From: Isoetes taiwanensis
Lineage: Eukaryota; Streptophyta; Lycopodiopsida; Isoetales; Isoetaceae
Assembly: GCA_021234155.1 (NCBI GenBank)
Contig: JAJEKV010000040.1
Location: 9,219,541 to 9,283,540 of the forward strand
Length of the DNA stretch: 64,000 bases
Direction of reading: 5' to 3'
The notes beneath the pieces are model-generated. The model had not been told where the DNA came from and made no database searches. It saw only the letters and a program-made list of their open reading frames with translations. The number at the start of each line of letters is the position of its first letter. Positions within the stretch are counted from its first letter, which is position 1. Made by a program: the position numbers and the translations under genes. Below, one piece after another: positions 2,786 through 4,099 of this stretch.

Positions 2786-4099
2786 CTAATGGGGATCTCC
2801 CTTAATTATACTGGCCAACTGCATATCTTTCCTCATTAACGTTACTCGCTTGGCATGCACGGTGCAGGCTGTGGAGTCTTCAAAATGCTGCACTATCTTT
2901 TGCTCGGCCGCTTCCTGCAGTGCCAACAGCATTTCGTCGGTTACCCTCATGCCGGTGTTAAAGTCCTGCATTACTTCTCTAACTAGACGGGCGAAGGGGG
3001 CACGGGGGATTAAGAAGCTGAAGCTGCGCTGGAAGTGCCTGATCTCCCTCAGTGCTCTTCTCTCGGTCTCCTTTCTGCTGGCTCTCTTCTTGGCTGGCTT
3101 CTTGGGGAGCTTGGGCTTCTCTGGTGGCGGCCTTAAGGTCTGCTGCTTTGTTGGATGTCCACCCTCGACAATCCTGACCCTGTTCTCCTGGTAGTAGGAG
3201 TTGTAAGCCTCCCACTTCTTCATGTAAGCGTTGTGCTCCCTCATCTTTCTCTCGTAGATCTTGATGGGGTCTGTCACGTAAGATTCTCGGGCAGGTCGTG
3301 GCTGTTTCTTCCTGTCCCAAGTCGGATATGGCGGGGGCTTCTGCACTTGATCCGGCTGCTCTGGGTCCTGTGCTGCCTGCTCGTCGCCTGGGGGCTTAGA
3401 AGAGCTTCCACCTGCGGTGTTGGGGTTGAAGTCTTCATCTTCAGAGTCGTCAGAGGAGGGTGGCTTGTCGGGCGGCCGTTCCGTGATGATGACCTTTGTT
3501 CTTGGGGCCTTCTTAAGTTTTCTTTGGCCCGCCTCCACGAACTTCCCTTTCTTCAGTCTCAATTCCTCGGCCTCTTTGGCCTCCTGCTCCTCCCCCTCCC
3601 TCTTCCTCTTCTTCTCTGCCCTCTTCTTTTCTCGGCGGCATTCTTTTGCTTCGTGCTTTTTGATCCATGCCGCGAGCTCTTCTTCCTCAGCCGGCTTGAG
3701 TGTCGGCTCTCTCTGTTCTTCTTGCTCCTCCGCCTCCTTCTCTCGAATTCAAGCTTCGAGTTCTTCCTCTATGGTTGGCTCGGGAGTCGGCTGCCTCTGC
3801 TCTTCGCGAGCCTTGGTTCTCTGCTCTCGCTCTGCTTCCTCGTCCTCAAGCACTTCTGTGCCTGCTTCTGAGTGCACCTCGTCTTGATCGACCTGCTGGT
3901 CTATCTCTTCGTCCTGTGCTCCTCCCTGCTGGGATCCTTCCTTCTGGTGCTCCTCTGAAGCTATCCCCTCGCTCGATGAAGACTGGCCATGCCTGTTAAA
4001 AAGGCGCTCCTGAAGCATCCGCTGTATCAGGCTCGGATCTTGGGCGCTGGCTGATCCATCAGGTCGGGGAACTCGAGCGGTCTGCTTGGTCCGGGCCAT
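2786..4099 (-). pseudogene. Histone H3-like protein with H3 tail and histone fold, in an LTR retrotransposon (one in-frame TGA)
   Basis: The frame from ATG 4099 to the stop at 2788-2786 holds 436 sense codons and one TGA (3751-3749, after codon 116). Residues 1-9 are MARTKQTAR, identical to the start of histone H3. About 340 residues of Glu/Lys/Pro-rich linker follow. The last 89 residues (3055-2789) are an H3 histone fold: ALREIR opens the alpha-N helix, then PFARLVRE, QDF, ALQEAAE, and HAKRVTLMRKD before the end. The loop 1 region has the canonical H3 length, so it is not CENH3-like. The upstream ATG at 4183 lies at or before the predicted transcription start, so 4099 is preferred. The TGA probably arose from CGA. 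If functional, it would be a nucleosome component or a decoy for H3-tail readers; that is inference. It is the first ORF after the LTR and PBS. Confidence 0.85.

What the first reader, a model, noticed from the sequence alone, without database searches (positions are those of the whole stretch)
2786..4099. An LTR retrotransposon that encodes a histone H3-like protein as its first ORF
The ORF opens MARTKQTAR, identical to the H3 tail, and closes with an 89-residue H3 histone fold. It sits directly after an LTR and tRNA-Met primer-binding site, before a gag-like frame. I know of no described plant LTR element with an H3-type protein here. Such a protein could enter nucleosomes at the element, protect its DNA copy, or titrate silencing factors.
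Basis: partly seen in the sequence, partly recalled or inferred. Interest (0 to 1): 0.95.

Follow-up and report, generated by a model that had tools for sequence, protein, structure and literature searches.

The report
Histone H3 gene inside plant retrotransposons
A large family of virus-like jumping elements in a plant genome carries, as its first gene, its own long version of the DNA-packing protein histone H3, preserved by natural selection, which suggests that these elements supply a chromatin part of their own.

Summary
On the minus strand, 4099-2786, a frame opens MARTKQTAR and closes with an H3 fold (PF00125, E=2.5e-27); this copy carries one in-frame stop. It lies between a 5' LTR with its primer site and an orphan ORF2; gag-PR-RT-RH-INT-chromodomain follow. 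The element is a Ty3/gypsy chromovirus.

It is no one-off. The genome (its size fits Isoetes taiwanensis) holds 1,888 exact MARTKQTAR codings, only 19 with the host continuation KS, and 1,320 exact AIHAKRVTI codings. Of 20 loci picked by ORF2 alone, 19 have the H3 fold at the same place. dN/dS of the fold is 0.06-0.09. Diverged lineages share the gene order; in the window lineage five of eight tail residues are fixed in 9 of 9 copies while their codons vary.

Most likely the elements encode a working H3 variant that pairs with host H4 and brings element-specific N-terminal parts to chromatin. The gene and the selection are shown; the mechanism is inferred. Closest precedent: H3 captured by fungal hAT DNA transposons. 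Ten searches of an open-access library found no retroelement with a histone.

The parts
4775..6342 (-). 5' LTR of the element (element runs right to left); its first bases differ from the TGTGACG start of the 3' LTR
   Evidence: Pair with L009 3133-4703, 96.3% over 1,577 columns
4762..4773 (-). Primer-binding site TGGTATCAGAGC (initiator tRNA-Met type, as recalled)
   Evidence: Directly inside the LTR end ...GACGTCACA; same 12-mer 0.6-1.0 kb upstream of ORF1 in 16 of 19 loci
4100..4761 (-). Leader with two strong hairpins (4495-4580, 4303-4390)
   Evidence: Folding z-scores -7.4 and -7.5
2786..4099 (-). ORF1, H3-like protein, 438 codons with the end stop; one in-frame stop at 3751-3749 in this copy
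4073..4099 (-). MARTKQTAR, copy of the first residues of histone H3
   Evidence: host H3; conservation
2789..3091 (-). Histone H3 fold
   Evidence: PF00125 E=2.5e-27; PDB histone H3.3 E=1.2e-25; coordinates
2368..2655 (-). Spacer between ORF1 and ORF2 with two further hairpins of the same kind
   Evidence: z -5.3 and -6.1
547..2073 (-). ORF2, orphan protein found after ORF1 throughout the family; one in-frame stop at 933-931 in this copy
   Evidence: hhalign to family ORF2 E=1.8e-8; tblastn E=4e-6; stops
1..265 (-). Probable start of gag, in frame with the gag match at L009 9998-9669
   Evidence: Frame continuity; PF03732 E=1.3e-4 in L009, just under its cut-off
7535..10266 (+). Second, degenerate element of the same family with an H3-like ORF1 (8894-10150, frameshifted, starts MARTKSTQ) and a run of A at 10238-10266

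Best explanation
What it is (shown by sequence): the first gene of a large, diverged family of Ty3/gypsy chromovirus LTR retrotransposons encodes a long H3 variant, an element-specific N-terminal part of about 300 residues joined to a histone H3 fold. It derives from an H3 gene and has been kept by purifying selection while the family split into lineages. How it works (inferred): the protein pairs with host H4 and uses the host route for H3-H4 into nucleus and chromatin. There the N-terminal part serves as the element's own tail: in the window lineage a copy of H3 residues 1-8 plus a long charged linker, in most other lineages read a folded domain with a long helix. The likeliest benefit is that new DNA copies of the element, or the sites where its chromodomain integrase acts, carry a histone supplied by the element, so that they are docked to, or kept readable in, host chromatin.
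For: Fold. Place in the element: LTR, primer site, ORF1, ORF2, gag-pol, chromodomain; among 19 loci of 10 kb picked by H3, ORF2 in 18, gag or pol in 17, the exact primer site in 16. Unbiased sample: 19 of 20 ORF2-picked loci have the fold. Numbers: 1,888 MARTKQTAR and 1,320 AIHAKRVTI codings, 19 with the host KS. Selection: median dN/dS 0.086 for the window-lineage fold, 0.059 for other lineages, 0.070 for ORF2-picked loci alone. Tail: A1, R2, T3, K4 and T6 identical in 9 of 9 window-lineage copies with two to four codons each. Nucleosome fitness: 34 other-lineage cores keep 11 of 11 recalled H3-H3' bundle residues and 16 of 19 recalled DNA contacts at 90% or more.
Against: No expression, protein or chromatin data. 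The window lineage keeps only 8 of 19 recalled DNA contacts, 7 of 19 H4-facing hydrophobics and 9 of 11 bundle residues, so it may no longer form ordinary nucleosomes. A histone fold can serve outside nucleosomes. Most other lineages read lack the H3 tail, so a tail function cannot explain the whole family. The window copy itself is degenerate. One window-lineage copy outside the nine starts MVRTKQTARK (L034).
Confidence: 0.55

Rival explanations
1. Decoy: the protein works through its copy of the H3 tail, occupying readers or modifying enzymes of the silencing machinery (free A1-R2-T3-K4 end) without needing to be in nucleosomes.
For: Tail residues 1-8 are conserved while codons vary, and residue 9 is K or V; the fold of this lineage has lost many recalled nucleosome contacts.
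Against: Most other lineages read start otherwise (MPRFKLT, MANTKSA, MEEVKQ) yet conserve the fold more strongly; in the window lineage too the fold is under stronger constraint than the linker (0.086 against 0.178).
Confidence: 0.2
2. Particle protein: ORF1 binds nucleic acid or gag in the virus-like particle and helps to pack RNA or cDNA; the histone fold is used as a basic DNA-binding module.
For: Its place before gag; a charged linker or long predicted helix.
Against: Pfam gag, capsid and zinc-knuckle matches exist further on, weak in the window's own element and clear for capsid in L014; the H3-H3' bundle residues, which matter for octamers, are kept in 34 other-lineage cores.
Confidence: 0.15
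3. Passenger gene: H3 was captured and merely copied along, as in the fungal hAT cases.
For: Published precedent for H3 capture; many copies are broken.
Against: dN/dS 0.06-0.09 in lineages whose synonymous sites are in part saturated; conserved place and gene order.
Confidence: 0.03
4. Domesticated host gene family, not an element gene.
For: Strong constraint on the fold.
Against: Dispersed over many contigs with many broken copies, next to ORF2, gag-pol and the primer site.
Confidence: 0.02

Closest known systems
hAT DNA transposons with captured histone H3 in Dothideomycete fungi (PMC3538342: passages read; PMC6710886: abstract and passages read)
   Same: A mobile element carries an H3-like gene and multiplies it; in Pyrenophora tritici-repentis next to another ORF of unknown function.
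   Different: DNA transposon with terminal inverted repeats; 26 near-identical copies, or hundreds of copies inactivated by RIP; no case made there for selection on the element's H3. Here an LTR retrotransposon, over a thousand codings, diverged lineages, purifying selection, and an N-terminal part of about 300 residues.
Single H3 histones of DNA viruses (review PMC9145170: passages read)
   Same: Selfish genetic entity with one H3-like histone close to host H3 in the fold, thought to act with host histones.
   Different: DNA viruses; the word retrotransposon does not occur in the review's main text.
Bracovirus histone H4 (PMC5423620: start of abstract in the listing)
   Same: Foreign histone that joins host nucleosomes and acts through its N-terminal tail; a working model for the mechanism proposed here.
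   Different: H4, virus of parasitoid wasps, acts on another species.
Extra ORFs (eORFs) of plant LTR retrotransposons such as Ogre, Retand, Athila, SIRE (PMC6317226: passages read)
   Same: Additional ORFs outside gag-pol, also upstream of it, in large elements.
   Different: Described there as highly heterogeneous and mostly without known domain; no histone is mentioned among the passages seen. Here one conserved domain in one place, in a chromovirus.
Lycophyte chromoviruses (PMC2864245: passages read)
   Same: Chromodomain Ty3/gypsy elements in lycophytes, with one clone from an Isoetes species.
   Different: No histone ORF in the passages seen; [quoted passage not shown]

Membership tests
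Ty3/gypsy chromovirus | Pair of LTRs with primer site and purine tract | tested here: met
   LTR pair 96.3%, TGGTATCAGAGC, AAGGTGGGGAGAA before TGTGACG
Ty3/gypsy chromovirus | gag, then PR-RT-RH-INT in that order | tested here: met
   RT, RH, integrase clear in L009; capsid and protease weak in L009 but clear in L014
Ty3/gypsy chromovirus | Chromodomain at the integrase end | tested here: met
   PF00385 E=1.1e-9, 38.5 bits, cut-off 25.1, L009 5637-6221
Ty3/gypsy chromovirus | Short target-site duplication | tested here: not met
   Flanks differ; the 5' LTR start is altered in this copy. Taken as decay of one copy, not as a defining failure
Ty3/gypsy chromovirus | Clade within chromoviruses by RT tree | not tested
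   No reference RT sequences at hand
Histone H3 | H3 fold by profile and by solved relatives | tested here: met
Histone H3 | H3-H3' bundle and DNA-contact residues | tested here: inconclusive
   Kept in 34 other-lineage cores (11 of 11; 16 of 19), partly lost in 15 window-lineage cores (9 of 11; 8 of 19); residue lists recalled
Histone H3 | N-terminal tail of H3 | tested here: inconclusive
   Residues 1-8 present in the window lineage, the rest of the tail replaced; most other lineages read lack it
Histone H3 | Pairs with H4 and enters nucleosomes | not testable with these tools
   Needs experiment
hAT-H3 transduplication | hAT transposase and terminal inverted repeats | tested here: not met
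   LTRs and reverse transcriptase instead; no hAT family in the Pfam scans of the frames given

The most novel reading that the evidence does not exclude
Selfish chromatin: these retrotransposons build part of their host's nucleosomes from their own H3, with an element-encoded tail or folded domain in place of the host tail, and so set the chromatin state of their own DNA or of their target sites. They would be the first retroelements known to encode a histone.
Probability: 0.3. Interest if true: 0.97.

Novelty: new variant of a known kind. Interest (0 to 1): 0.88.

Why it matters
Retrotransposons are silenced through marks on histone H3, and chromovirus integrases carry a domain of a type that reads histones. 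An element that brings its own H3 would turn that relation round. The family is abundant, diverged and under selection, so what a transposon gains from a histone becomes directly testable (H4 pairing, presence in chromatin, marks on the tail). It also shows that repeat annotation can hide a conserved gene: the word histone does not occur in the main text of either Isoetes genome paper looked at.

Tried and rejected
One-off capture: rejected by 19 of 20 ORF2-picked loci and by genome counts. Passenger gene: made unlikely by dN/dS. Selection bias: L010-L028 were chosen from the best H3 hits, most of them with long open frames, so their dN/dS leans low; the ORF2-picked set, chosen without regard to H3, gave 0.070.

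Relatives elsewhere: ORF1 of L014 against 5.8 billion proteins gave 4,661 matches among 7,931 scored; the 120 listed cover 21-44% of the query, and the four read (P0001-P0004) are fused or tandem histone gene models. The ORF2 alignment (7,997 candidates scored, none at E<=0.001) and residues 1-300 of the L028 ORF1 (6,185 candidates, none at E<=0.01) gave nothing. Isoetes elements may simply be missing from that collection, so restriction to Isoetes is not shown.

Fold of the N-terminal part: residues about 10-240 of the L028 ORF1 are predicted with pLDDT mostly near 90, but in Foldseek only two H3 chains reach E<=0.001 (PDB) and no viral model does; the second look gave no telling match. The order helix-helix-strand-helix-strand-strand and some winged-helix proteins among weak hits made me consider a winged helix; not supported. 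The ORF2 model is poor (mean pLDDT 40.8) and was not searched. The H3 part of the ORF1 model is itself of low confidence, so I rely on sequence there.

H3 tree: 57 rows, 99 columns, 5 of 47 inner branches starred. It shows the window lineage as one well supported group on a long branch but cannot tell one capture from several. RT dN/dS rests on 3 pairs.

Counts that are weaker than they look: the 8,705 and 11,929 first-look candidates are loose; only 150 and 147 were scored. Not all of the 1,888 MARTKQTAR places are this family: of four picked by the tail pattern and read, three are of the window lineage and one (L063) is another degenerate H3-bearing repeat.

Literature: ten searches ran, with no paper found; one search failed on its wording and did not count. 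The library holds open-access PubMed Central papers; most subscription journals are missing.

Not done: expression, small RNAs, other Isoetes genomes, an RT-picked sample of elements, an RT tree with references.

Full report
The thing itself. On the minus strand the window reads, from right to left: a 5' LTR (6342-4775), the primer site TGGTATCAGAGC (4773-4762), a 663-nt leader, ORF1 (4099-2786), a spacer, ORF2 (2073-547) and the probable start of gag (265-1). Left of the window (L009) follow weak capsid, zinc-knuckle and protease matches, then clear RT, RNase H, integrase and chromodomain matches, a purine-rich tract and the 3' LTR. The LTRs are 96.3% identical over 1,577 columns. No target-site duplication was found. 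ORF1 and ORF2 of this copy have one in-frame stop each, and its integrase lies in broken frames: this copy is degenerate.

ORF1 is H3-like at both ends. It starts MARTKQTAR, as host H3 does, and ends in an H3 fold (PF00125 E=2.5e-27; PDB histone H3.3 E=1.2e-25) that shares 51 of 100 aligned residues with the host core. Between them lie about 300 mostly charged residues. Residue 9 of the tail is V in this copy.

The genome. The genome held for the window has 1,658,258,908 bases in 1,110 contigs. The published Isoetes taiwanensis assembly has 1658.30 Mb in 204 scaffolds plus 909 unplaced contigs (PMC8566536, passages). I take it to be that quillwort; this rests on size and contig number only.

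A family, not an accident. A PF00125 search gave 8,705 loose first-look candidates; 150 were scored and all matched, 15 over profile positions 2-122 as ordinary H3, the other 135 starting at position 4 or later, most near 20, with open frames of up to 494 residues. The window's own C-terminal part gave 11,929 first-look candidates, 147 scored, with identities of 69-93% apart from itself, on many contigs. Exact codings of AIHAKRVTI number 1,320 and of MARTKQTAR 1,888, each with 0 for the reversed pattern; only 19 of the latter continue with the host residues KS. Of four places picked by the tail pattern alone and read, three are of the window lineage and one (L063) is another degenerate H3-bearing repeat, so the 1,888 are not all one family.

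Constant place. I read 19 loci of 10 kb around long H3-like frames (L010-L028, chosen). All 19 have the H3 fold. ORF2 follows in 18 of 19 (not L014), gag or pol matches lie in 17 of 19 (not L012 and L025, within the 10 kb read), and the exact 12-base primer site lies 0.6-1.0 kb upstream of ORF1 in 16 of 19 (not L013, L015, L021). As an independent sample I took the 20 best ORF2 hits that were not in the H3 hit list: 19 of 20 have the H3 fold upstream, some cut or with stops, and L046 only a weak match. The window ORF2 is a distant member of the ORF2 family (hhalign E=1.8e-8, 25% identity). The window element's polymerase is 70% identical over 367 aa to that of L014, which belongs to another H3 lineage.

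Lineages. ORF1 N-termini differ: MARTKQTAR (window), MARTKGTKSYA (L028), MANTKSAPDP (L010, L011), MPRFKLTVDLKK and near forms (many), MEEVKQ or MEPVKQ (L015, L026). The lineages other than the window's can be aligned along their N-terminal part (42-75% identity over ORF1 to L014); in L028 its first 240 residues or so are predicted as folded with no confident match. The window lineage has a charged low-complexity region instead and aligns with them only in the fold, so whether it goes back to the same capture is open.

Selection. With NG86 and pairs of 0.1<dS<1.5, median dN/dS is 0.086 for the window-lineage fold (60 pairs), 0.178 for the stretch before it (91), 0.059 for the fold in other lineages (283), 0.070 for the ORF2-picked loci alone (71), 0.162 for ORF2 (47) and 0.020 for RT (3 pairs only). 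Between some lineages synonymous sites are saturated while the fold differs at dN of about 0.1; between L010 and the window lineage dN is 0.54. Window-lineage tails: of 15 sequences (14 fetched plus the window), five gave no alignment of the start and one (L029) has small deletions there; in the nine left, A1, R2, T3, K4 and T6 are the same in 9 of 9 although each is written with two to four codons; Q5 is kept in 7, A7 in 8, R8 in 8; two copies have a stop there; residue 9 is K or V. L034, one of the five not aligned, reads MVRTKQTARK.

What is kept in the fold. Against the host core, 34 other-lineage sequences keep 76 of 100 positions at 90% or more and 15 window-lineage sequences keep 44. 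By residue lists recalled from nucleosome structures, the other lineages keep 11 of 11 H3-H3' bundle residues, 16 of 19 DNA contacts and 14 of 19 H4-facing hydrophobics; the window lineage keeps 9, 8 and 7. All 49 have L90 as host H3 does; residue 87 differs from the host reference in all. The window lineage is thus the most divergent, while the others look fit for a nucleosome.

Mechanism. Shown: an integral, selected H3 gene in a chromovirus family. Inferred: pairing with H4 and use of host H3-H4 chaperones and import; docking of element DNA or targets to chromatin; a tail function in the window lineage that needs residues 1-8 but not K9. The integrase chromodomain is present; by my own reading of its sequence two of the three aromatic cage positions are not aromatic, as PMC6317226 (passage) describes for type II chromodomains, whose partner is unknown. 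A simple loop in which the element's integrase reads the element's H3 is therefore only a guess.

Known relatives. H3 genes inside hAT DNA transposons of fungi are published (PMC3538342; PMC6710886), as are H3 genes of DNA viruses (PMC9145170). Extra ORFs are common in other plant LTR elements but heterogeneous (PMC6317226). The ten literature searches that ran (listed under Tried and rejected) showed no retroelement with a histone. I file this as a new variant of a known kind, transposon-borne H3, with an unprecedented carrier and clear selection.

Noticed in passing
window 2368-2453, 2568-2655, 4303-4390, 4495-4580: Four near-identical strong hairpins of about 70 nt (z -5.3 to -7.5), two in the leader and two between ORF1 and ORF2. 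Their core motif occurs in 9 of 62 loci then fetched, all of the window lineage; possibly a packaging or translation signal.
   Followed up: partly
window 7535-10266: A second, degenerate H3-bearing element on the plus strand with an ORF1 starting MARTKSTQ and a run of 29 A at 10238-10266, 88 nt after its stop; it may be a retrocopy of an ORF1 transcript or an element cut by another insertion.
   Followed up: partly
window 6512-7535 and L009 1731-2747: A repeat of about 1 kb, 96.1% identical, lies just outside both LTRs in the same orientation; the element may sit inside another, smaller element.
   Followed up: no
L063 (1401 bases): A different repeat with a MARTKQTAR start and a decayed H3 fold; its exact 26-base start is 14 of the first 100 places listed.
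   Followed up: partly
L014 3922-8197: In this copy gag-pol starts about 360 bases after ORF1 and ORF2 is missing; ORF2 may be dispensable or this copy was trimmed.
   Followed up: no
L011 3120-4520 (ORF2 model): The poor ORF2 model shows a repeated strand-strand-helix pattern, which could hint at repeated small domains.
   Followed up: no
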